DNA from: Microvirga pudoricolor
Lineage (GTDB): Bacteria; Pseudomonadota; Alphaproteobacteria; Rhizobiales; Beijerinckiaceae
DNA: 64,000 nucleotides
Assembly: GCF_016892705.1 (NCBI RefSeq)
Contig: NZ_JAFEMB010000009.1
Location: 1-64,000 of the forward strand
Reading direction: 5' to 3'
Made by a program: the position numbers and the translations under genes
Notes under the pieces: model-generated
The model's input: only the letters and a program-made list of their open reading frames with translations
Databases searched by the model: none
Told to the model about the DNA's origin: nothing
Shown: positions 27,343 to 36,676 of the stretch, in pieces
Numbering within the stretch: the first letter of the stretch is position 1
Layout: every line of letters begins with the position of its first letter

Positions 27343-27449
27343 CAGATGCCGCCGGACGTGGCCGCTGCGGGCTTGCGTCAGGGTGTCGCGTTCACCCGTG
27401 AGGGCTGCGGCCCCATCTCCTCCACATCGTCTCGTTGCGGAGATCTGAG

Positions 27450-27719
27450 ATGGCAGTTCGCATTCCCCAGAGCTTGTTGACCGGCCTTCAGCCGGAGACG
27501 GGCTGGAGCGTGCTTGATTATGAACTCAGGGAGCAGAAAGCGCGTACGCTCGGCACCTTGAGCAGCCAGGTCGAGCAGGCTCTGGCGGCGTTGCGGGTCT
27601 TCGATGCCGAAGCGCACGAGCCTGACCGGGAGCGTCGTCACCGTGCCTTGCTGGACGATGCAGCCGATCTCGTCTTGGCCTTCATGATCCAGCGGGAGCT
27701 CTGCGGTCTCCGGAATTAG
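27450..27719 (+). CDS. Small DUF6665-like protein
   Basis: This 89-residue helical protein starts at the ATG at 27450 (GAGATCTGAG upstream). The pattern MAVRIP..L..GL.PETGWSVLDYE, then a Glu/Gln-rich helix with LSSQVEQALAAL, and an end with DAADLVLAFMIQRELCGLRN matches the small DUF6665 proteins of Hyphomicrobiales, whose role is not known. It lies 107 bp after the cyclase gene. Confidence 0.65.
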   Translation: MAVRIPQSLLTGLQPETGWSVLDYELREQKARTLGTLSSQVEQALAALRVFDAEAHEPDRERRHRALLDDAADLVLAFMIQRELCGLRN

Positions 27720-28011: not shown

Positions 28012-28584
28012 TCATCGACTATCGGTTGCTTTGCCCGCCTGACCATTTTCCAGTATTCGATACACCTGCATCCGTGAGCATCCGATTGCCTGCGCGATGG
28101 CAGTCGGGCCCTTGCCTTGCGTATACAGACTCAAGATCTTATCGTGATCCAATCGACGCTTGCCGCCGCGATAGGAGCCATGGGCCTTGGCTTCCTCAAT
28201 GCCGTCGCGTTGCCGCTCCTTGATGAAGCGTCGCTCCATTTGAGCGACCATGCCGAGAACCGTCAGTACTATATGACCCATCTCGCCTCTGGTTGAGACA
28301 TGGGGATCTAGCACCGTCACGAAAGCGCCCTTCTGCTCGCATTCGTGGATCAGGTTGAGCACATCCCGTGTGTCCCTGCCGAGACGATCAAGCCGAGTGA
28401 CCACAAGCTCATCGCCCGGTCGGAGAAAGTCGAGGATAGTCGCTAGTTCAGTACGGCCATCGCGGCTCGCCCCTGACACTTTCTCGGAGCGAATGACCTC
28501 GCAGCCTTCAGCTTTGAGCTTCGCAAGCTGTGTATCAAGATCTTGGTCGGTGGTGCTGACGCGGGCGTAACCGATGCGGGCCAT
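28012..28584 (-). CDS. Serine recombinase (Tn3-type resolvase/invertase family)
   Basis: This 190-residue site-specific recombinase has the catalytic Ser10 in GYARVSTTDQDLDTQ and the arginine motif LVVTRLDRLGRDTRD near residues 60-74. The dimerisation helix follows (residues 98-125). A C-terminal HTH lies at about residues 150-180 (GPTAIAQAIGCSRMQVYRIL). A palindromic region with several copies of GTCACCTCAGGG lies immediately upstream and is a plausible recombination/autoregulatory site. No transposase is encoded nearby, so this is either a resolvase left from a transposon or a stability recombinase of the island. Confidence 0.92.
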   Translation of the reverse strand: MARIGYARVSTTDQDLDTQLAKLKAEGCEVIRSEKVSGASRDGRTELATILDFLRPGDELVVTRLDRLGRDTRDVLNLIHECEQKGAFVTVLDPHVSTRGEMGHIVLTVLGMVAQMERRFIKERQRDGIEEAKAHGSYRGGKRRLDHDKILSLYTQGKGPTAIAQAIGCSRMQVYRILENGQAGKATDSR

Positions 28585-28585
28585 A

Positions 28586-28706
28586 TGTCACCTCAGGGTT
28601 TAGGCCCGACCGTAGCAGTGTCACAAATAGGCCCGTCAACCCAGATGTGACATGAAATTCAGTGCCCTAAGTGACGTCACCTCAGGGTATACCCTGAGGT
28701 GACGTG
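28586..28706. promoter_or_regulatory. res-like palindromic region of the serine recombinase
   Basis: Three elements are seen. TGTCACCTCAGGGTTTA lies at 28586-28602. An inverted pair TGTCACA/TGTGACA lies at 28619-28625 and 28646-28652, 34 bp overall. A perfect 32-bp palindrome spans 28674-28705, with arms ACGTCACCTCAGGGTA and its complement around the centre TA. Repeated GTCAC half-sites at about 30-bp intervals resemble the subsites of a resolvase res site. The assignment is inferred from position and symmetry. Confidence 0.6.
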
Positions 28707-28742
28707 TCACGACTTCATTGGAAGTAATTGCAAAGCAATATT

Positions 28743-31190
28743 TTAGGCGACAACCATGGCCACGTTGAGGTTTTCAATTATCGCTTGAACCTCTGAATAA
28801 AGGTCTGCCTCTACTTCGCCAGCGTCGATTTCGACGATCAACGAGAAGCGGGCCGAGCGGGTGTCTGGATCAGGGACCGACTTAGACTTCCACCATCCGC
28901 TTACGGGGTGAACAGCTAGGATATTGCGGCGAGCAAGATCCGATGCAGCACAGGTAAGCTCATCAATGTGAAGTGATCCAACATCTCTGCGGTTGCGTCC
29001 GAACATCCAGCCATCGTTTTCCTCGATTACCGGAGCTTCTGGTTGGTCCGCAACCTTGCTAATTCTAGCTATGAAGTCGGACTCACTCTCGTTCGCGCGG
29101 TTGAGCTTGAATCGTAGATTATGTGAGGCATAGCGGAACTTAGAGCCGCGTGCTGGTTCAGAAGGATTAGGAGCAATGAACGTGCTCAACGCGACGCGCA
29201 GTGTGACAGGTGCGTTTGTGAGCTTTCGTAACTCCTCTACAGGCCATGGAAGTGTGAAGAGCTTCATCTCATTATGAGTGTGCTCTAATCCTGATTTACC
29301 GCTTTTGCGGAAGGGCGTGATCGCATCTTGTACAATAAGTGTCAGTGCATTTGATGCGCTTCTACGTGCGCGAGCCATATCAGGGACGCCAAATCCGTAA
29401 CGCTTAAAGAGCGGTGCATAATGCCCTTTCCCTGGATTATTAGGTAGATGGCTCCGCATTTGATCCGTCCAGCGTGCCGACGACACAAACAGCGCCCGGA
29501 TCGTTTCTGGCCAGAGGTTTGGGTAGTCGGACCAAAGCTCTGTAATTGCTTTTGCAGCCAAGGCGGTCGCGCCACTGGTCTCCCCGCAGGTGGTAAATGC
29601 ACGCTGCGGATATGTATGGTCAGTTGTAAGCAGCGATAGCGCCGGATGTTTCATCGGCGGAGGTAGACCATTGACCACCCAATTCCCACCCTCAAATACA
29701 ACATCAGGCTTGATCGGCCAATGAGAAGACCAGCTAGCTGTTCTTGAGGACGGAGCCAAGTCGCCCACAGGTGCCAGTGGTGTACCGGGCTCATCGGGTG
29801 GAATAACATTCTTGCTCGTATAGGCACCTACACTGATGACATTCCATGCTTGGGCAGGGGATTCGATCTCATGGTCTGGAAGATCGCAAACAGGCAGGTA
29901 GTTATCATTACCAAAATGGTTCTGGTTGGTGTTTCCTGCAGATACCAACATGAGTCGCTGGATTTTCTTATTACCCGATACGCCTGCTGTTAACTGGTCG
30001 AGTGCACTTGACCATGACGTTGGGGCTCCATCATGAGGTGTGTCGTCTTCAGTCGTGCTCGCCATAGTGAAGGTGCGACGGCGATCTGCCATTGCTTCAG
30101 CGGCATTGATGCCTGCCCCCGTGGTTGCACCTAAAAGGTGGTGAGGGTTTTGCCCTGCATCTGGAATTATTTTTGCTGATTCAAGCCTGTATCTAATTTG
30201 AATAGGGGATCTAGTTTGAAGAGTGAGCGTCAAGTCGCCATAAAGTGAAAGACCGGCCAATTGTGTCCCATGCCCAACCTGATCTTCTACGCCCCATGCT
30301 GGATCAGCGGCGTGCCGATCAGCTGAGTCGAGTGCAGGAGAGATCAGCGGATGAGCGCGACTAACGCCTCTATCTAATAGAGTTATATAGTTGAAATCGC
30401 CGACGCCGTCGAATGTTGTCAAAGCAGTTAATGCGTCCAACCACTCAGCTTGCTCCTCAACCGGCATAGCATCGAAGTAGTCAGCAGTGACGGTAGGAGC
30501 GGCGAGAGCACGAACTCCTGCAAGACGGCGGATCGCGAGAGCAAGCGCATCGCGCGTTGCAGCTGCGATTACGACAGTGTCTTCCGGGAATTCTAAGCGG
30601 TCATCACTAACTGCAACACCGTATTCTCTTGCGTGGGCAATGAAGGTGTTCGCGTGTTCTTTGTCGAGCCAAACTTCCCATGAAACCGGGCCTGCTGTTT
30701 CGGGAAATTTGTGATTTGGACTCCGCCATAGCGCACGGAGTCCTGCCTCGACTATAGAGGCGATACTCTGGACAAGATCAGCATTGAATGGGCGGCCTTC
30801 GCTACCATCCTTCTGCGGCCGGTTCTTCTCCCCAAAATCTTCAATTTTTCGTCGTAGCTTGTCCAACCCTTCAGGTGATGCAAATACAGTCGCTCTTGTC
30901 GGCTGCCCTTCCTCGACGCTAGAGGCGACCTTAAGAAGTGTTATGCCACTTACGTTGAGGCTTTTGGTAGCCATAATCTCGCCGGGTCTACCTTCAATAT
31001 CGAGGTAGACACCTGGTAGTGCCGCTGTCCTTATATCAGGGAGACCATCAAGTGCTCGTAGAAGCGATTGAGCGTGCGCAACCCGGTCAGTAACATCATT
31101 TGGATGTCTTGTTATGGGCTGCCCTTTTGGTTTGAACTTTTCGTCCCGCCCCAAGCCGTTTATTATGAAGTGTTGGCGATCCCGCGCCAT
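28743..31190 (-). CDS. ietS: IetS, subtilisin-like (S8) protease of the IetAS defence pair
   Basis: The 815-residue protein has a long N-terminal part (residues 1-265) and an S8 peptidase core: catalytic Asp273 in LLDRGVSRAHP, His307 in QVGHGTQLAG, oxyanion Asn420 in SAGN and Ser539 in GETSGATALAAK. The triad is complete. There is no signal peptide, so it acts in the cytoplasm. The gene overlaps the upstream AAA ATPase gene by 95 bp. An AAA ATPase plus S8 protease pair is the IetAS system, first reported as a plasmid stability/exclusion locus of an Agrobacterium Ti plasmid and later shown to protect from phages. The ATPase presumably restrains or activates the protease. Confidence 0.85.
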   Translation of the reverse strand: MARDRQHFIINGLGRDEKFKPKGQPITRHPNDVTDRVAHAQSLLRALDGLPDIRTAALPGVYLDIEGRPGEIMATKSLNVSGITLLKVASSVEEGQPTRATVFASPEGLDKLRRKIEDFGEKNRPQKDGSEGRPFNADLVQSIASIVEAGLRALWRSPNHKFPETAGPVSWEVWLDKEHANTFIAHAREYGVAVSDDRLEFPEDTVVIAAATRDALALAIRRLAGVRALAAPTVTADYFDAMPVEEQAEWLDALTALTTFDGVGDFNYITLLDRGVSRAHPLISPALDSADRHAADPAWGVEDQVGHGTQLAGLSLYGDLTLTLQTRSPIQIRYRLESAKIIPDAGQNPHHLLGATTGAGINAAEAMADRRRTFTMASTTEDDTPHDGAPTSWSSALDQLTAGVSGNKKIQRLMLVSAGNTNQNHFGNDNYLPVCDLPDHEIESPAQAWNVISVGAYTSKNVIPPDEPGTPLAPVGDLAPSSRTASWSSHWPIKPDVVFEGGNWVVNGLPPPMKHPALSLLTTDHTYPQRAFTTCGETSGATALAAKAITELWSDYPNLWPETIRALFVSSARWTDQMRSHLPNNPGKGHYAPLFKRYGFGVPDMARARRSASNALTLIVQDAITPFRKSGKSGLEHTHNEMKLFTLPWPVEELRKLTNAPVTLRVALSTFIAPNPSEPARGSKFRYASHNLRFKLNRANESESDFIARISKVADQPEAPVIEENDGWMFGRNRRDVGSLHIDELTCAASDLARRNILAVHPVSGWWKSKSVPDPDTRSARFSLIVEIDAGEVEADLYSEVQAIIENLNVAMVVA

Positions 31191-32178
31191 TCAGACCTAC
31201 CCCTATCCCTTGTAGTGAGCGGCGCCGTTCAAGAGATGCAATTAGTGCAAGGGTCTCAATAAGGCTTGAGCCTCCTAGCACTGCTCTCCTTGCCGCATCC
31301 TCACCAGCTGCAATAACATCAGCCGTTGATAATCCTTCTGCGCATCGAGCAACTTCCGGCCAGTTAACCTGCCTAATGTCAAAGCCTGTTAAGCGGCGCC
31401 GCATCGCTTTCTCGATGGCAGACCCAGCAGGCATCTCATAGGAAAGAACAAGATCAAAGCGTCGAAGGACAGCACGATCAAGAATTTGTGGAATGTTGGT
31501 TGTAGCGACGATGATAGATGGGCCCATATCCTCATCCAAAAATTGGAGAAAGGAATTAAGTATGCGGCGGGCTTCCCCTATGTCGTTCTCCGAACCACGT
31601 GTCGCTGCAAGGGCATCGATCTCATCAAATAAATAAATACCTCGCGTTGTTCGGACGGCATCGAAAATCATCCGCAACTTTTGTGCCGTCTCCCCCATGA
31701 ATTTTGTGATCAGACCATGTAGCAGAACTGTAAAAAGGGGAAACTTGAGTTCACCCGCAAGCGCAGCGGCACTTAAGGTCTTGCCTGTACCAGGCGGACC
31801 TGCAAGCAATAATCTACGCCGTGGCCTTAGTCCCTTCTCTTCGAGCCGCTCTGTCATCCGGGTTTCGGTAACAACGTGCGCTAGCTCATCTTCCAAGTGA
31901 AGAGGCAGGATCACATCAGCTAGACGTGTCGTTGGATAGCTCGCGCTAAGTAAGCCAGCGAGGTCTCCACGCGGGGCGGTTATGGGGGTAAAATTTGGAC
32001 GACTAACCTTTGTAGGAGCCTGGCCTGCCTCCGCCCATTGCCGAAGTTGCTCCGCAAGTCGCGTGTGCCCCTTTTGAGCTTCAGCTGCGGCAAGCTGCAT
32101 AGCAAGGTCGAAGAACCGAGATTCGTCCCCCTCTGCATGGCTTTTAACTAGCCCAATAAGTTGCTGAGCAGATGCCAT
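31096..32178 (-). CDS. ietA: IetA, AAA ATPase of the IetAS defence pair
   Basis: The 360-residue protein has a helical N-terminal region (1-90) and one AAA module. Walker A GPPGTGKT lies at residues 127-134, Walker B LFDEID at 183-188, sensor-1 TTN at 226-228 and arginine fingers at RRFD near 239-242. It belongs to the classic AAA (FtsH/spastin-like) group. An AGG precedes the ATG by about eight bases. Its 3' end overlaps ietS by 95 bp, so the two are co-translated and stoichiometry is fixed. The C-terminal tail is basic (AGRKVQTKRAAHNKTSK). Confidence 0.87.
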   Translation of the reverse strand: MASAQQLIGLVKSHAEGDESRFFDLAMQLAAAEAQKGHTRLAEQLRQWAEAGQAPTKVSRPNFTPITAPRGDLAGLLSASYPTTRLADVILPLHLEDELAHVVTETRMTERLEEKGLRPRRRLLLAGPPGTGKTLSAAALAGELKFPLFTVLLHGLITKFMGETAQKLRMIFDAVRTTRGIYLFDEIDALAATRGSENDIGEARRILNSFLQFLDEDMGPSIIVATTNIPQILDRAVLRRFDLVLSYEMPAGSAIEKAMRRRLTGFDIRQVNWPEVARCAEGLSTADVIAAGEDAARRAVLGGSSLIETLALIASLERRRSLQGIGVGLNGAGSPTLHNKRLGAGRKVQTKRAAHNKTSK

Positions 32179-32377
32179 ATTATGCCTATCGGTGCCCTAT
32201 ACCCCGCCGCAACCATCCATACAGAAGCCAACGTTCCACAATATACCATGCCGACTGCATATCGCGTACCGTCCAGTCAACGTTTTCCCAAAGAGTTTAG
32301 TTCTTTGGAACCAAGCTTTTACACACACATAAGTTAGGGATTAAGGTCTATATTCCTATGAATGACCGCCTCGTTAG
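32179..32377. other. Intergenic region between ietA and the UDG-like gene
   Basis: This AT-rich stretch holds an inverted repeat CCAAAGA-N7-TCTTTGG at 32288-32308, upstream of ietA and downstream of the UDG-like gene on the same strand. It may be an operator of ietAS or a weak terminator; no T-run follows it on the minus strand. Confidence 0.4.
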
Positions 32378-33046
32378 TCATATCAGATGAAGTTGATGAC
32401 TGTTCTCTGGTTGGCATCTGAGATGATAAAGGCTTTCTAAACTCTCTATGAATTCAGTTTGCCCGCCATAGCTGGGATGGCGCACCGCTACCGCCTCAAT
32501 ATCGAGATCGAGCAGTGCCGATTGTGCATCCCGCCCAATTGCAACGACACGCTTGGGTCTGAGAGCCTCTATCAGACTGTTCAGTAGTGGTTTGCACGCT
32601 ATACGTTCAGCGGATGTGTGACATCTATTCGTCAAAGGCTCGTTGGGAGCATGCGGATGAAACGGAAAGACATTCCAAAGGAACACCGGCTGCTCAATAG
32701 CTTTTAACATACGCCAAACTACAGTTGCCGTTCTCTCTGCGACTGGTGGGCCTTTGGTTGCTCGATCAAGAGGCGCAGTGCCAAAGAGTTCAGTGTGCGA
32801 GGGCAGATGCACCTCGTCAGTAAGGGCAAGCCCTGTGCGCCTTCCGCCTCTATACCCAAGATCGCGTGCAATCCAAAAAGAATGCACACCACGTTCCAAG
32901 GCTGCACTTAAGACGGCCTCAAGATTCCTTCGACGAATAGCAGGTGCGTCTTCGGCATCGCAATCAGGGCACAAATCTGAGTATGGGTTAAACGCATTCG
33001 CGAAACGCAGCGAAGCGAGATCGGCTACAAACGTTGCAGGGTTCAT
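32378..33046 (-). CDS. Uracil-DNA glycosylase superfamily protein in a four-gene module
   Basis: This 222-residue protein has the UDG fold. The first motif region FWIARDLGYRGGRRTG lies at residues 57-72 in place of the canonical GxDPG loop. A central strand WNVFPFHPH lies at 124-132, and VRHPSYGG at 188-195 corresponds to the HPSP loop. The usual catalytic Asp/Asn is not obvious, so it may recognise a modified nucleotide or act in DNA without excising uracil. A Cys pair (LCPDCD, residues 25-30) may bind metal. Its ATG overlaps the stop of the MazG-like gene (ATGA), so the two are translationally coupled. AT-rich codon use. Confidence 0.72.
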   Translation of the reverse strand: MNPATFVADLASLRFANAFNPYSDLCPDCDAEDAPAIRRRNLEAVLSAALERGVHSFWIARDLGYRGGRRTGLALTDEVHLPSHTELFGTAPLDRATKGPPVAERTATVVWRMLKAIEQPVFLWNVFPFHPHAPNEPLTNRCHTSAERIACKPLLNSLIEALRPKRVVAIGRDAQSALLDLDIEAVAVRHPSYGGQTEFIESLESLYHLRCQPENSHQLHLI

Positions 33047-34188
33047 AGCGGAAGCTCCTGCACAATCATATCTCGCTTGTCTAGATCAAGAACGAGTAGC
33101 CCGCGGCGTTTCATCTGCAAGAAGCGAAAAGCTGCATTGCCTTTGAGGATGGCCTCCTCCCAAAGCCACAACGGGCAGTTCTCTGCTTCAAAACCTTTGA
33201 CGAAGCTTCTTGCAACTTTGAGCATTGTAAAATCGAGTTCATTTCTACCCTCGAAAAAATTGTGCTCCTTAGCTCTACTAAATACGTAAGCGACAACGCC
33301 TTCTTCGATAATTCCGGCTCGCGCTCCATCCTCACCATCATCGATTTTTGTTTTGCTCTTGCGTTTGAGCTTGAGCAATGCACGAGTAACGGGCGACCAG
33401 CCTAGGACAGCTGCATAAGCATAATGGAAGACATCATGGAAACGATAAAAATCCTCGACAACATTATTGTCTGTTAAGCGGTCGCCAATATTCACGCCAC
33501 GGCATCTTTGGTACACGTACATCTTACCTGCTGACTCTCGCTCAAATATCTCGATTTCAAGCTGACGAGGAAGCTGTTCTTCCTGCGGAAAATCGATGTC
33601 AAAGAGGGGTGGGGGCGTTCTATTAGTTGGCCATCTATCCTGTGCCTTTTCAATATTTCGGATAGCTGCGTCCTCGAGAGTAACACCTGCCTCATTGGCG
33701 GCGTCAATAAGGGTATCGAGAACGCCGGAAAGCATATCGCGTAACGATAGTGTGCTGTTTTGAAAATCATCCATGTCGTTACCAGCGAGCTTACCCACAG
33801 CAGTCGCTAGTTTTAGTAGTGTGCGCTCAAATGCAGTAGATGGTGCTGATAAGGGTAAGCCAGCCTGAGGCTGCAAATTGACGAATCTAATATGAAGGGC
33901 TGCTGTTCGGTTGTTCTCTGAAACTAAATCAGAAAGCCTTAGGTTGGCGTGGTGAGCAATAATTGCTAAATACCATAGTGTGTCGCCGAATTCTTCAACA
34001 ACACCATTCTCATATGTATCATAAGATTGAGAGTCTCGCTGCTTTTTCTTAACTTCGCTAAGTAAGCTTCCAGTTTCGCCGAATAAACCTAATATTGGTA
34101 ATGACAATCTACTAGTTACAAGGTTAGTTCTGTCAGTCTTGACCGCTAAGGACTGATATTCATCAAGCGTCATCGAATAGTCGCTCAT
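33043..34188 (-). CDS. MazG-like nucleoside triphosphate pyrophosphohydrolase with unknown C-terminal domain
   Basis: From the ATG at 34188 the product has 381 residues; a GTG at 34215 is possible but has no space for a ribosome binding site. The first 110 residues are an all-alpha NTP-PPase of the MazG kind: LDEYQSLA, then LFGETGSLLSEVKKKQRD (36-52) and VVEEFGDTLWYL (63-74), with the metal-binding Glu38, Glu45, Glu65/66 and Asp69 positions all in place. Residues 190-381 form a second helical domain with FHDVFHYAYAAVLGW and IIEEGVVAYVF, perhaps a degenerate related fold. It is divergent from the TIR-like gene and coupled to the UDG-like gene. Confidence 0.78.
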   Translation of the reverse strand: MSDYSMTLDEYQSLAVKTDRTNLVTSRLSLPILGLFGETGSLLSEVKKKQRDSQSYDTYENGVVEEFGDTLWYLAIIAHHANLRLSDLVSENNRTAALHIRFVNLQPQAGLPLSAPSTAFERTLLKLATAVGKLAGNDMDDFQNSTLSLRDMLSGVLDTLIDAANEAGVTLEDAAIRNIEKAQDRWPTNRTPPPLFDIDFPQEEQLPRQLEIEIFERESAGKMYVYQRCRGVNIGDRLTDNNVVEDFYRFHDVFHYAYAAVLGWSPVTRALLKLKRKSKTKIDDGEDGARAGIIEEGVVAYVFSRAKEHNFFEGRNELDFTMLKVARSFVKGFEAENCPLWLWEEAILKGNAAFRFLQMKRRGLLVLDLDKRDMIVQELPL

Positions 34189-34370
34189 ACTAGCCCCGTA
34201 TACGGAATTCGCCACCTTCTATCATGAGAATGTAGAAAATTAAACTTATGCGTGCAAGGGACTTGCCATTATAAGCTGTGAAACTTTAATACTAGAGCCG
34301 AGCTTTTCCACTGCGTGAATGCAATGGGAAGCGGCAGACCCTTTAGCGACGAAGTTTCTCGGAGAAGTTG
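34189..34370. promoter_or_regulatory. Divergent promoter region of the four-gene module
   Basis: The 182-bp AT-rich interval separates the MazG-like gene (minus) and the TIR-like gene (plus), so both promoters must lie here. I see no perfect long palindrome or recognisable operator. Confidence 0.45.
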
Positions 34371-34775
34371 ATGCCAAAAGCATATGTTTTAAATGAAAAG
34401 CTATCAAATGCCGATCGAGAAGCGATTGCAGGTTTGTTGACGCAGAATGGCTACAGTCCCCATTTTGGTTTCCCAGAAAATCTGCCTGCTCTGAACCCTC
34501 AAGTTGACATAGGCGTAGTTTGCCTGCCGATTGATCTATCGGAGCAGTCGTCTCTTCAAGAATACATTCAAGCCCTTATGGCTGCTGGTATACGTGTTGT
34601 GTCGATATGGCTTCATCCAGCAGATGCCTTACCTTTAGGAGTTGAGAAATTCGGTTCTGCGGCTGTTGCCATAGACTCTCCCAAGGTAAAAGAAGCCTTG
34701 CAAGGTGAGGCGATATGGGAGGGGGCAAGCGGAGAGCAGCGGCCTCAACAACCAATGACTCGGAATAGGTGCTGA
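34371..34775 (+). CDS. Small Rossmannoid (TIR-like) protein
   Basis: The 134-residue protein is not recognised by a specific family name. It alternates strands and helices as in TIR or related Rossmannoid domains: KAYVLN strand, helix ADREAIAGLLTQNGY, strand DIGVVCLPID, helix SSLQEYIQALMAAGI, strand RVVSIWL, and a late strand AAVAID. The first position that in NAD-cleaving TIR domains holds a Glu before the third helix cannot be located with confidence. The start is supported by GGAGAA seven bases upstream. The next gene starts one base after its stop. It is divergent from the MazG-like gene. Confidence 0.6.
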   Translation: MPKAYVLNEKLSNADREAIAGLLTQNGYSPHFGFPENLPALNPQVDIGVVCLPIDLSEQSSLQEYIQALMAAGIRVVSIWLHPADALPLGVEKFGSAAVAIDSPKVKEALQGEAIWEGASGEQRPQQPMTRNRC

Positions 34776-34776
34776 G

Positions 34777-35364
34777 TTGTCAGTTTATACTTATGTCGTC
34801 GAACATGATATGGGTTTCGCGCCTAATCCATTCTGGGGTATATGCACACTCGCTAATTGTAAACCGCAGATCAGGAAGAAGGCGGTCGAAGGTGATATTG
34901 TCATTGGCACGGGATCCTCTGGAGCAAAGCTTGCAGGTCATCTTATTTATTGGATGAAAGTCGAATACATCATGAATTTTGATGAGTATTGGAGAGATCC
35001 CCGATTTCGCCTCAAGCGCCCAATACTCAACGGGAGCAAGGCCCAACAATTTGGAGACAATATTTACTATACCGATGGAAGTGGAAAAATCCGCCAACTC
35101 GACTCCTTCCATAGTGAACCTAATGGTGTGGTGAGTATCGGAAATCTAAAGCGAGACACAGGTCGAACCAATCGTGTCCTTGCCGGGAAAAGTTTTTCTT
35201 ACTTCGGTAAAAGGGCACCATTAATACCAGACGAGCTTCGCTTCATGGTCAAAAAGGGTCCAGGGCACAAATGTAGATTTACGAATGCGCAGAAAGTCGC
35301 AATTGCTCAATGGCTAGATGACCTAGGTACATTTGGCCTACACGGTGAGCCTGTCAGATGGTAG
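34777..35364 (+). CDS. Nmad2-like protein (nucleotide-modification-associated domain)
   Basis: The start is a TTG one base after the previous stop, with an AGG seven bases upstream. The 195-residue product resembles Nmad2-type domains as I remember them: N-terminal YTYVVEHDMGFAPNPFWGIC, then LANCKPQIRKKAVEGDIVIG (residues 25-44), a YWMKVEYIMNFDEYW strand-helix, FGDNIYYTDG near residue 92 and HSEPNG further on. These proteins occur beside enzymes for modified DNA bases and in defence islands; their biochemistry is unknown. Together with the MazG-like and UDG-like genes it points to handling of modified nucleotides. AT-rich codon use. Confidence 0.58.
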   Translation: MSVYTYVVEHDMGFAPNPFWGICTLANCKPQIRKKAVEGDIVIGTGSSGAKLAGHLIYWMKVEYIMNFDEYWRDPRFRLKRPILNGSKAQQFGDNIYYTDGSGKIRQLDSFHSEPNGVVSIGNLKRDTGRTNRVLAGKSFSYFGKRAPLIPDELRFMVKKGPGHKCRFTNAQKVAIAQWLDDLGTFGLHGEPVRW

Positions 35365-35392
35365 GTGCCCTCATGATCCGGCCTTGCCAACA

Positions 35393-36643
35393 TCAAGCTC
35401 TCTCCATAGCAGACGAAATTTGCGTTGAAATTAAATCTGCAGCTCTCCGAAGCGGATCAGCATCGAGATGAGCGTACCGTGCTGTCGTTCGAGGCTGTGT
35501 ATGTCCGAGCAACTTACCGACAATCGGTAAGCCGAGGCTAGCTCCAGTGCCTATGGATGCGAAGGTGTGACGTAGATCGTGAAGTCGCACACCTTCCAAA
35601 CTTGCCCGAAGCTGGATCGCAGCCCATGGCTTCTTGAGGTCTGCACGGGGCTGATCCTTCTTGGCCCCTTCTATGACATAGACGCTGTTCTTGGGAAGGC
35701 TCTTAAGAACCTCTAAAGCAACATTGCTAAACATCAGTGGCTTCCGGCCCGTTTTGCTATCAGGCAGAAATGCCATGCCTCTTTCGAGATCCACTTCCTG
35801 CCAACGCAGGTGTAGAATTTCCCTTAGGCGAGCACCTGTGAAGAGAAGAAGCCGTAGAGCCGCAATGGCTGCGGGCTCCGGCTTAGTGCGCCGGTTCTCG
35901 GGGGCTGCAAGGTGTTTCGCCTTCGGTTTAGTCTCATCAACCTGCCACGGGAGTCCGATGGTTTCGGCTTCAATAAGGGCAGCTCCTAGCCTCCCAAGCT
36001 CCTCAGAGGTCAGGTATCGCTCACGTCCTTGCTCCGGGTACTTGTCTATGCCCCTAACCGGATTATAGCCTTCAGGGACGATCTCACGTTTGCCAAGGAA
36101 TGTATAAAGACTGCTGACGATGGAAAGGGTCCGGTTGGCCTGAATAGGGCTGTCCTTCATCTTGTGATGAAGCTTCAGGAGGTCGGCCCGCGTGACCTTC
36201 TCCGCTGGACGATTGCCGATCTCAGGGATGACATGCCGCTTGAGAGCCGAGGTGTATTCCAGTGCCGTTCTCTCCTTTCGCTTCGGATTGACGTGCTCCT
36301 TTAGGTACAGGTCTATGGCATCCTTTACGATCATCGCTGCCTTCGCAGCTGCCACTTGGGCCGCCGGGTCTGAGCCGACAGCAACCGCTCCAAGGATGTT
36401 CTGGGCTTGGGCGCGGGCCTGATCAGGGGTCAGATGGCCATGACGGCCAATGGTCATGAAGCGTTTGGGAGCAGTGCGGCCCAGCCCCTTGGGGCGATAT
36501 CGAACAATGTAGGTCTTCTTGCCTGATGTTTCGATCCGAATTCCGAAGCCGGAAATGTCGCTATCCCATAGAATGTACCGAGAGGGTCCCGGCAGGGCTT
36601 GATCGACCGCGCGTTTGGTCAGGCGAGTGGTAGTTTCAGGCAT
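35393..36643 (-). CDS. Tyrosine-recombinase integrase of the island (P4 type)
   Basis: From the ATG at 36643 the protein has 416 residues (an upstream in-frame ATG at 36673 exists). An N-terminal arm-binding DUF4102-type domain covers residues 5-95, a SAM-like core-binding domain about 105-190, and the catalytic domain 205-405. All catalytic residues are seen: Arg272 (GARLREIL), Lys297, His355 and Arg358 (HDLRHTF), His381 (GHTQPRTTARY) and Tyr390. The gene points away from the right att site, which is 188 bp upstream of its start, the normal layout for tRNA-targeting islands. TGGT-N-ACCA boxes lie in this interval. Confidence 0.95.
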   Translation of the reverse strand: MPETTTRLTKRAVDQALPGPSRYILWDSDISGFGIRIETSGKKTYIVRYRPKGLGRTAPKRFMTIGRHGHLTPDQARAQAQNILGAVAVGSDPAAQVAAAKAAMIVKDAIDLYLKEHVNPKRKERTALEYTSALKRHVIPEIGNRPAEKVTRADLLKLHHKMKDSPIQANRTLSIVSSLYTFLGKREIVPEGYNPVRGIDKYPEQGRERYLTSEELGRLGAALIEAETIGLPWQVDETKPKAKHLAAPENRRTKPEPAAIAALRLLLFTGARLREILHLRWQEVDLERGMAFLPDSKTGRKPLMFSNVALEVLKSLPKNSVYVIEGAKKDQPRADLKKPWAAIQLRASLEGVRLHDLRHTFASIGTGASLGLPIVGKLLGHTQPRTTARYAHLDADPLRRAADLISTQISSAMERA

Positions 36644-36676
36644 AACGAATCCGTCCAAAAATCGGGTCTGCATCGG

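What the first reader, a model, noticed from the sequence alone, without database searches (positions are those of the whole stretch)
32378..35364. Divergent four-gene module: MazG-like NTP-PPase + UDG-like protein versus TIR-like + Nmad2-like proteins
Two pairs of tightly coupled genes face away from one promoter region: MazG-like/UDG-like with an ATGA overlap, and TIR-like/Nmad2-like one base apart. A nucleotide pyrophosphohydrolase, a glycosylase-fold protein with altered active-site loops, a Rossmannoid sensor-like protein and a nucleotide-modification-associated domain together suggest sensing or removing modified nucleotides of an invader. The module lies in AT-rich DNA between IetAS and the integrase, a typical position for defence cargo. 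I do not know a described system with this set. Coupling and motifs are seen; domain names come from memory of the families; function is inferred.
Basis: partly seen in the sequence, partly recalled or inferred. Interest (0 to 1): 0.88.

Follow-up and report, generated by a model that had tools for sequence, protein, structure and literature searches.

The report
Probable modified-thymine anti-phage module
Four neighbouring genes, seen together in many unrelated bacteria, look like one mobile defence unit that may act on phage DNA or nucleotides with altered thymine; this copy is an odd version whose alarm-signal protein has lost its active site but kept its tail.

Summary
In detail: UDG-like 32378-33046(-), MazG/MazG_C 33043-34215(-), TIR-like 34371-34775(+), Nmad2 34777-35364(+). 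The four belong to one recurrent family. In the 80 genome loci most similar to the window's Nmad2 (of at least 558), a TIR-family gene lies upstream of Nmad2 in 80, MazG is in 62, and the partner is this UDG (40) or a 5-hmdU-kinase-family protein (34), both in 2. An E. coli operon (TS, dNMP kinase, 5-hmdU kinase, TIR, Nmad2) carries domains listed for validated systems in DefensePredictor (2026); MazG/NMAD/UDG sets are there only predicted. New here: Nmad2 probably has a PUA-like fold; the UDG keeps UNG's Asp, Asn and His but has Gly at the Tyr that excludes 5-substituents; TIR partners end in R-x-x-Cys even when the TIR is degenerate; degenerate-TIR loci (the window's type) lack TIR/SLOG/patatin-type neighbours (0 of 36, against 38 of 44; about two independent events), though some have other candidate effectors. 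Best reading: MazG and UDG act directly on 5-substituted uracil. No experiment covers this subtype.

The parts
32378..33046 (-). UDG-superfamily glycosylase-like protein, 222 aa; UNG-type Asp62, Asn125, His190; Gly64 at the position of UNG Tyr66, Leu75 at that of UNG Phe77 (UNG numbering recalled)
   Evidence: PF03167 43.2 bits; motif spacing against the host's family-1 UNG and conservation over 40 sequences
33043..34215 (-). MazG domain + MazG_C domain, 390 aa as called (start may be a downstream ATG)
   Evidence: PF18722 266.5 bits, PF03819 22.4 bits; E47, E74, E75, D78 kept in 98-100% of 48 sequences; its C-terminal part matches phage MazG family phrog_229, 198.5 bits
34216..34370 (.). Divergent intergenic region. 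One weak promoter-like match near it (34407-34379, minus strand, oriented towards MazG-UDG), no more than shuffles give
   Evidence: 1 found, shuffles mean 0.6
34371..34775 (+). Degenerate TIR-like protein, flavodoxin-like alpha/beta fold, without the catalytic Glu motif of its relatives
   Evidence: AF2 model pLDDT 94; alignments; PADLOC ThsB E 9.8e-5
34761..34772 (+). C-terminal R-x-x-C tail of the TIR-like protein (R132-N-R-C135)
   Evidence: Cys in the last 5 residues of 74 of 81 partner TIRs, Arg at -3 in 63 of 74; lowest-confidence part of the model
34777..35364 (+). Nmad2 protein, 195 aa, TTG start; probable PUA-like fold; invariant D11, C28, K29, R33, D94, Y97, H112, D127 among others
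   Evidence: PF18753 216.7 bits; AF2 pLDDT 97; Foldseek; alignment of 67

Best explanation
The four genes are one mobile anti-phage unit directed at 5-substituted uracil (hydroxymethyl-uracil or hypermodified thymine) in phage nucleotides or DNA. Proposed order: MazG/MazG_C hydrolyses a modified dNTP; Nmad2, a PUA-like base-binding protein, recognises the modified base; the UDG-like enzyme, whose C5 pocket is opened by Tyr-to-Gly, excises it from phage DNA and leaves abasic sites; the TIR-like partner supplies its C-terminal R-x-x-Cys tail to Nmad2. In relatives with a live TIR the same recognition would also switch on an ADP-ribose-type signal for a TIR/SLOG or patatin-type effector. The window copy belongs to a clade that has lost TIR catalysis and these effectors, so it would act directly. 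Shown: gene set, linkage, motifs, tail, near-exclusion of UDG and kinase. Inferred: substrate, direction of signalling, defence.
For: TIR-family ORF upstream of Nmad2 in 80 of 80 loci; MazG 62, UDG 40, kinase 34, UDG with kinase 2 of 80; 11 UDG/kinase switches on the Nmad2 tree. The kinase, TS (9 of 80) and dCTP-deaminase-like genes (10 of 80) are by family name handlers of 5-substituted or deoxyuridine nucleotides. UDG: Asp-to-GLA spacing of 10 residues as in the host UNG; Asp62 in 37 of 40, Gly64 40, Asn125 40, His190 40. That small residues at the UNG Tyr admit thymine is recalled. Nmad2 model and fold matches. E. coli TS-DNMK-HMUDK-TIR-Nmad2 operon carries domains named for validated systems. 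Precedent: Brig1 and Brig3. Rare and mobile: 2 of 61 genomes, own included; 17 plasmid records; 0 of 50,697 phage records.
Against: No experiment on this subtype. That the domains TS, dNMPk, 5hmdUk and NMAD form one validated unit, and that it is our E. coli operon, is my inference from a legend. Foldseek for Nmad2: no PDB match at E 0.001 or below; ranks 1-7 are chains of one protein (ZmASCH, best E 1.6e-3, TM about 0.4-0.5). UDG substrate rests on sequence. UDG/kinase exclusion is strong uncorrected (p 2.8e-12) but borderline in independent pairs (median p 0.06). Degenerate TIR without effector rests on about 2 events. Degenerate-TIR loci do hold other possible effectors: metallophosphoesterase in 4 and HTH-M78 peptidase in 7 of 80, all of them degenerate-TIR. 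The 80 loci are the nearest to the window's Nmad2; in a phylum draw 4 of 6 Nmad2 genomes had distant Nmad2 without TIR, and 3 of 13 in the class draw likewise.
Confidence: 0.42

Rival explanations
1. Signalling system: MazG_C and UDG make a ligand rather than destroy. They release a modified base or dNMP from phage material; Nmad2 binds it and relays to the TIR partner, whose product activates an effector, in the window's case one elsewhere in the genome.
For: 38 of 44 loci with intact TIR carry a TIR_2/SLOG, patatin/TM-family or extra ThsB-TIR gene; Thoeris precedent (passages); Kongming precedent for base-modified nucleotide signals (one passage).
Against: The window TIR and those of 36 of 80 loci lack an intact catalytic motif (in L074 and L089 a Glu aligns but the rest is lost), and none of the 36 has such a gene nearby. 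A distant effector in the genome was not searched for.
Confidence: 0.25
2. Nucleotide-pool sanitation and repair cassette (removal of dUTP or damaged pyrimidines), with no role in defence.
For: MazG and UDG are common repair and sanitation families; MazG acidic motif intact.
Against: The host has five other UDG-superfamily genes; the cassette is rare (13 of 385; 2 of 61), found on plasmids, beside IetAS-like genes and an integrase, and tied to a TIR-family gene in 80 of 80 loci.
Confidence: 0.1
3. Decaying remnant: the degenerate TIR marks a module on its way out.
For: TIR motif lost; long window branch, 0.81.
Against: The degenerate state is an old clade of 34 rows (98/82) in many families, with open frames, conserved MazG and UDG motifs and the conserved tail.
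Confidence: 0.05
4. Two unrelated gene pairs (MazG-UDG, TIR-Nmad2) that merely share defence islands.
For: MazG-UDG or MazG-kinase also occurs without TIR-Nmad2, beside M78 peptidase and/or c13 genes (L042, L043, L045, L046, L047).
Against: MazG in 62 of 80 TIR-Nmad2 loci, often directly downstream of Nmad2 on the same strand; natural Nmad2-MazG fusion in L070.
Confidence: 0.15

Closest known systems
DefensePredictor systems (PMC13092281): validated systems whose legend lists TS, dNMPk, 5hmdUk and NMAD (Fig. 3C); predicted systems with MazG, MazG-C, NMAD (section 8) and UDG (Fig. 6F legend)
   Same: Same domain families; an E. coli operon with TS, dNMP kinase, HMUDK-family kinase, TIR and Nmad2 exists
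   Different: Window has MazG-UDG in place of TS and kinases and a degenerate TIR; the text I read gives no mechanism, subtypes or tail motif; figures and tables not seen
Thoeris (ThsB TIR with SIR2-SLOG or TM-macro ThsA)
   Same: Live-TIR relatives have ThsB_TIR partners and often TIR_2/SLOG proteins nearby
   Different: Window TIR lacks the catalytic motif; no SIR2-SLOG or macro effector; Nmad2, MazG and UDG are not Thoeris parts
Brig1 / Brig3 DNA glycosylases
   Same: UDG superfamily, defence islands, modified phage base as target (passages)
   Different: They act on hmC derivatives and defend as single genes; 'MazG' occurs in neither text.
Kongming (KomABC, dITP signal)
   Same: Idea of a base-modified nucleotide in immunity
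   Different: Its parts as I recall them (deaminase, HAM1-like, SIR2) are not among the four
IetAS
   Same: Immediate neighbour in the window
   Different: Separate AAA ATPase + subtilase pair, about 200 bp away; window proteins score below the NCBIfam cut-offs

Membership tests
TIR-Nmad2 family (as delimited here) | TIR-like gene directly upstream of Nmad2, same strand | tested here: met
TIR-Nmad2 family (as delimited here) | C-terminal R-x-x-Cys on the TIR partner | tested here: met
   R132-N-R-C135
TIR-Nmad2 family (as delimited here) | MazG_C plus UDG or HMUDK-family partner nearby | tested here: met
   MazG_C and UDG present
Thoeris | Catalytically competent ThsB TIR (Glu motif) | tested here: not met
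   WVNWEI motif of relatives absent in the window protein
Thoeris | ThsA effector (SIR2-SLOG or TM-macro) in the locus | tested here: not met
   not among the eight proteins of 28012-36673 scanned with Pfam and PADLOC
TS/5hmdUk/NMAD type | Thymidylate synthase and 5-hmdU-kinase-family genes | tested here: not met
   not among the eight proteins scanned
Brig-type antiviral glycosylase | UDG-superfamily fold | tested here: met
   PF03167 43.2 bits
Brig-type antiviral glycosylase | Excision of a modified phage base; defence by the single gene | not testable with these tools
   needs enzyme and plaque assays
Canonical family-4 UDG | NCBIfam UDG_fam4 cut-off | tested here: not met
   26.3 bits against 125.3
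PUA-like fold (ASCH/EVE/YTH), for Nmad2 | Structural match to solved members | tested here: inconclusive
   PDB ranks 1-7 are chains of ZmASCH (best E 1.6e-3, prob 0.98), ranks 8-10 are structural-genomics entries that I recall as EVE proteins; none at E 0.001 or below; BFVD best E 9.7e-5 is unnamed, ASCH and EVE entries among the rest
Kongming | KomA deaminase, KomB HAM1-like, KomC SIR2-like (recalled) | tested here: not met
   no such domain in the four proteins

The most novel reading that the evidence does not exclude
Nmad2 works with a thiol on a mobile C-terminal Cys tail, given in trans by the TIR partner or in cis by Nmad2 itself. The tail enters the Nmad2 base pocket (C28, K29, H112, D94/D127) and reacts with, or is displaced by, a 5-substituted uracil released by UDG. 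In live-TIR members this frees the TIR to couple the captured base into an ADP-ribose signal; in the window's clade the TIR domain survives only as carrier of the tail.
Probability: 0.1. Interest if true: 0.9.

Novelty: new variant of a known kind. Interest (0 to 1): 0.7.

Why it matters
It turns a list of predicted defence domains into one family with a fixed core (TIR-Nmad2), two exchangeable nucleotide arms (MazG-UDG or MazG-5hmdU kinase) and swappable effectors, all pointing to 5-substituted uracil. It gives Nmad2, whose function is explained in no paper I found, a likely fold, a partner and a testable ligand class. The degenerate-TIR clade is a natural experiment on what the module does once TIR signalling is gone. 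The R-x-x-Cys tail is a sharp, cheap mutational target.

Tried and rejected
TIR tail as a ribosome-binding-site artefact: rejected, since the conserved Arg uses all six codons and the Cys both codons; non-adjacent TIRs of the same loci end in Cys in 1 of 19, other ORFs in 27 of 1,893.

Phage origin of Nmad2: no match in 50,697 phage records with the window protein or a stand-alone Nmad2; 10 IMG/VR contigs, of which L145, L146, L148 and L150 hold cassettes like the bacterial ones. MazG_C, by contrast, is shared with phage MazG proteins (phrog_229); tblastn of the window MazG hits 13 phage records, over 22-24% of it only.

Clean attachment or empty site: in the relatives compared, the two flanks lie on different contigs or far apart, and no convincing end repeat was found; left open.

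Foldseek on the TIR-like model gives generic receiver/Rossmannoid hits first (StyR E 3.7e-4); SARM1, SpbK and BtpA TIRs and DNPH1 come lower. It supports the fold class, not TIR specifically. PDB sequences: none related to Nmad2, only weak ones for UDG and MazG. The first viral scan, with the single Nmad2 sequence, found nothing. In one search my ORF choice took wrong frames for host UDG loci in the alignment; I used only the printed ORFs and redid the UNG comparison. Papers: 'Nmad2' gave three unrelated ones; no paper held all of MazG, uracil-DNA glycosylase, TIR and anti-phage; one search gave one paper without UDG. Burroughs 2015 and Iyer 2013 are not held and were not read.

Rows dropped or treated apart: L070 (fusion) from the Nmad2-tail count; seven TIRs without Cys in the last five residues from the codon count. 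L128 is 'not intact' (Glu changed) but live by score. The TIR ORF of L077 ends 160 bases before Nmad2 and may be broken.

Full report
Observation. Pfam names three: UDG PF03167 (43.2 bits), MazG_C PF18722 (266.5) with a MazG domain at its cut-off (22.4 against 22), and Nmad2 PF18753 (216.7). The fourth has no Pfam match and only a weak PADLOC ThsB match (E 9.8e-5). PADLOC has no match for the other three. The module lies in low-G+C DNA (0.45-0.52) between IetA/IetS-like genes and a tyrosine integrase.

Is it one system? In 385 genomes of the class, Nmad2 occurs in 13 and MazG_C in 13; 9 have both (0.4 expected if independent), and in 8 they lie within 2.5 kb. In all 80 a TIR-family ORF stands upstream of Nmad2: 78 by the position filter, the other two, L073 and L077, seen and re-read. 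MazG is present in 62 of 80, the UDG in 40, a kinase of the 5-hmdU DNA kinase family (HMUDK_hel PF18723) in 34; UDG and kinase together in 2, neither in 8, four of these on contigs cut short. Uncorrected exclusion is p 2.8e-12. On the Nmad2 tree the partner changes 11 times; in 9 supported independent pairs the two go opposite ways in 4.8, the same way in 0.1, and do not differ in 4.1, median p 0.06. The exclusion is recurrent but not proven after correction. Hosts span Pseudomonadota, Actinomycetota, Bacteroidota, Chloroflexota, Planctomycetota, Acidobacteriota and others. A natural Nmad2-MazG fusion exists in L070.

Limits of that survey. The 80 loci are those most like the window's Nmad2. 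Of the 13 Nmad2 genomes in the class draw, three (L037-L039) have distant Nmad2 without TIR, and two are fragments. In a phylum draw of 398 genomes, 6 had PF18753: the window's, one (L184) with a TIR-Nmad2-kinase-TS-TylF-SLOG set, and four with distant Nmad2 without TIR. Among 61 relatives, own genome included, 2 carry Nmad2; the other, in the same genus (L183), has MazG, UDG and Nmad2 with a high-scoring TIR and a gene of the patatin/TM family c5. The cassette is rare and mobile: 17 of 72,556 plasmid records have a match, 0 of 50,697 phage records.

Effectors and the degenerate TIR. Neighbours of live-TIR loci include TIR_2 proteins with SLOG (LD_cluster2, LD_cluster3), fused in L117 or side by side, patatin/TM-family proteins, and further ThsB-type TIRs. 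The canonical partner TIR is ThsB_TIR PF08937 (L053, 81.8 bits). Of 44 loci whose partner TIR is intact (Glu of WVNWEI and over 140 bits), 38 have such a gene; of 36 others, none has (p 7.7e-17 uncorrected). In two of the 36 (L074, L089) a Glu aligns but the rest of the motif is gone. The tree shows only two changes of the degenerate state, a clade of 34 rows (support 98/82) plus L129 and L139: a suggestive pattern from about two events. Against a strictly effector-less reading, metallophosphoesterase (4 of 80) and HTH-M78 peptidase genes (7 of 80) are seen only in degenerate-TIR loci and could be other effectors. The window has neither; its neighbours are IetAS-like genes and the integrase.

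The tail. What degenerate and live TIR partners share is the C-terminus: Cys within the last five residues in 74 of 81 (exactly last in 58), Arg three before it in 63 of 74. Both Cys codons and all six Arg codons occur, so the constraint is on the protein. Non-adjacent TIRs of the same loci end in Cys in 1 of 19, other ORFs in 27 of 1,893. In the AF2 model of the window protein (pLDDT 94) the low-confidence part is this tail. Stand-alone Nmad2 proteins carry a Cys in their own last six residues in 8 of 13, TIR-paired ones in 6 of 80 (p 2.7e-5 uncorrected, background 147 of 1,775). The four paired Nmad2 that end exactly in Cys all sit in the 20 loci whose TIR tail is not canonical (p 0.003 uncorrected); they are two lineages, and in one (L077) the TIR ORF may simply be broken. 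I read this as a thiol tail that Nmad2 needs, supplied in cis or in trans. That is inference, made after seeing the data.

Nmad2. The model is confident (pLDDT 97). Foldseek finds no PDB match at E 0.001 or below. Ranks 1-7 are chains of one protein, ZmASCH; ranks 8-10 are structural-genomics entries that I recall as EVE proteins; YTH, THYN1 and TRIP4-ASCH come further down at E 0.65 or worse, among unrelated folds. In the viral library the best hit (E 9.7e-5) is unnamed, with ASCH and EVE entries among the rest. PUA-like folds often bind modified bases (general knowledge). Invariant in 67 sequences: D11, G13, A15, P16, C28, K29, R33, D94, Y97, H112, D127, G144; in the 15-row set with distant stand-alone members only five columns stay invariant, C28 and K29 among them.

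UDG. Against the host's family-1 UNG (L194) the distance from the catalytic Asp to the GLA motif is 10 residues in both, Asp to Asn 58 and 63, Asn to His 64 and 65. Over 40 sequences: Asp62 in 37, Gly64 in 40, Leu75 in 35, Asn125 in 40, His190 in 40. Gly64 falls where UNG has the Tyr that keeps 5-methyl out; SMUG1 and MUG have Gly there (recalled). The host has five other UDG-superfamily genes, so this one is unlikely to be needed for ordinary repair.

Literature. DefensePredictor (PMC13092281; abstract, sections 5, 7 and 15, passages of section 8 and part of the references read; figures and tables not seen) names a 5-hydroxymethyluracil kinase and a thymidylate synthase among validated domains, lists TS, dNMPk, 5hmdUk and NMAD in the Fig. 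3C legend, and names MazG, MazG-C and NMAD (text) and UDG (Fig. 6F legend) for unvalidated predictions. A blastn query finds an Nmad2-like stretch in 16 of 5,426 E. coli genomes; in the two loci opened the operon reads thymidylate synthase, a small protein (DNMK in L189), HMUDK-family kinase, ThsB_TIR ending in Cys, Nmad2, beside a divergent SLOG/TIR_2/ThsB_TIR set. I infer that this operon is one of the validated systems. Brig1 and Brig3 (passages) are the precedent for UDG-superfamily defence, Kongming (one passage) for base-modified nucleotides in immunity, Thoeris (passages) for TIR signalling. In the searches, whose listings I saw, I found no paper that describes the four-part set with a mechanism.

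Verdict. A real, widespread, modular family, probably anti-phage, of which the window holds the MazG-UDG, degenerate-TIR subtype. Best reading: direct attack on 5-substituted uracil, with Nmad2 as base reader. My confidence that the four work together is about 0.75, that the target is 5-substituted uracil about 0.5, in the full mechanism 0.42.

Noticed in passing
window 28743-32178: IetA/IetS-like pair next to the module; on Rhizobium plasmid L049 an S8 family peptidase with a smaller neighbour also lies beyond the UDG.
   Followed up: partly
L042, L043, L045, L046, L047: MazG-UDG or MazG-kinase pairs without TIR-Nmad2, beside M78 peptidase and/or c13 genes (some with a papain-like peptidase): perhaps an alternative core for the same arm; L064 and L065 hold both.
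   Followed up: partly
L048, L049, L064, L073, L074, L082: Metallophosphoesterase gene beside or within the cassette in degenerate-TIR loci; DefensePredictor validated other metallophosphatases (DS-8, DS-9).
   Followed up: no
L070:9001-11325: Natural Nmad2-MazG fusion protein.
   Followed up: no
L068, L069, L071, L072, L075, L077, L090: Longer MazG (544-595 aa) with an extension that has no Pfam match in L068, in kinase-type, degenerate-TIR loci.
   Followed up: no
L054: Two TIR-Nmad2 pairs back to back on one Mesorhizobium plasmid, with MazG-UDG, SLOG/TIR and a patatin-family gene.
   Followed up: no
L048:56-3155: His-Xaa-Ser maturase cluster (hxsB, hxsC, hxsA) a few kb from the module on an Agrobacterium plasmid.
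   Followed up: no
window 27362-27715: Stretch at the island's left edge that matches more than one place in some related genomes.
   Followed up: no
c5 family, e.g. L105:10225-10875, L122:9726-12308: Unassigned family of small, often TM-bearing proteins that share sequence with large patatin-TM proteins near live-TIR modules; candidate effector.
   Followed up: partly
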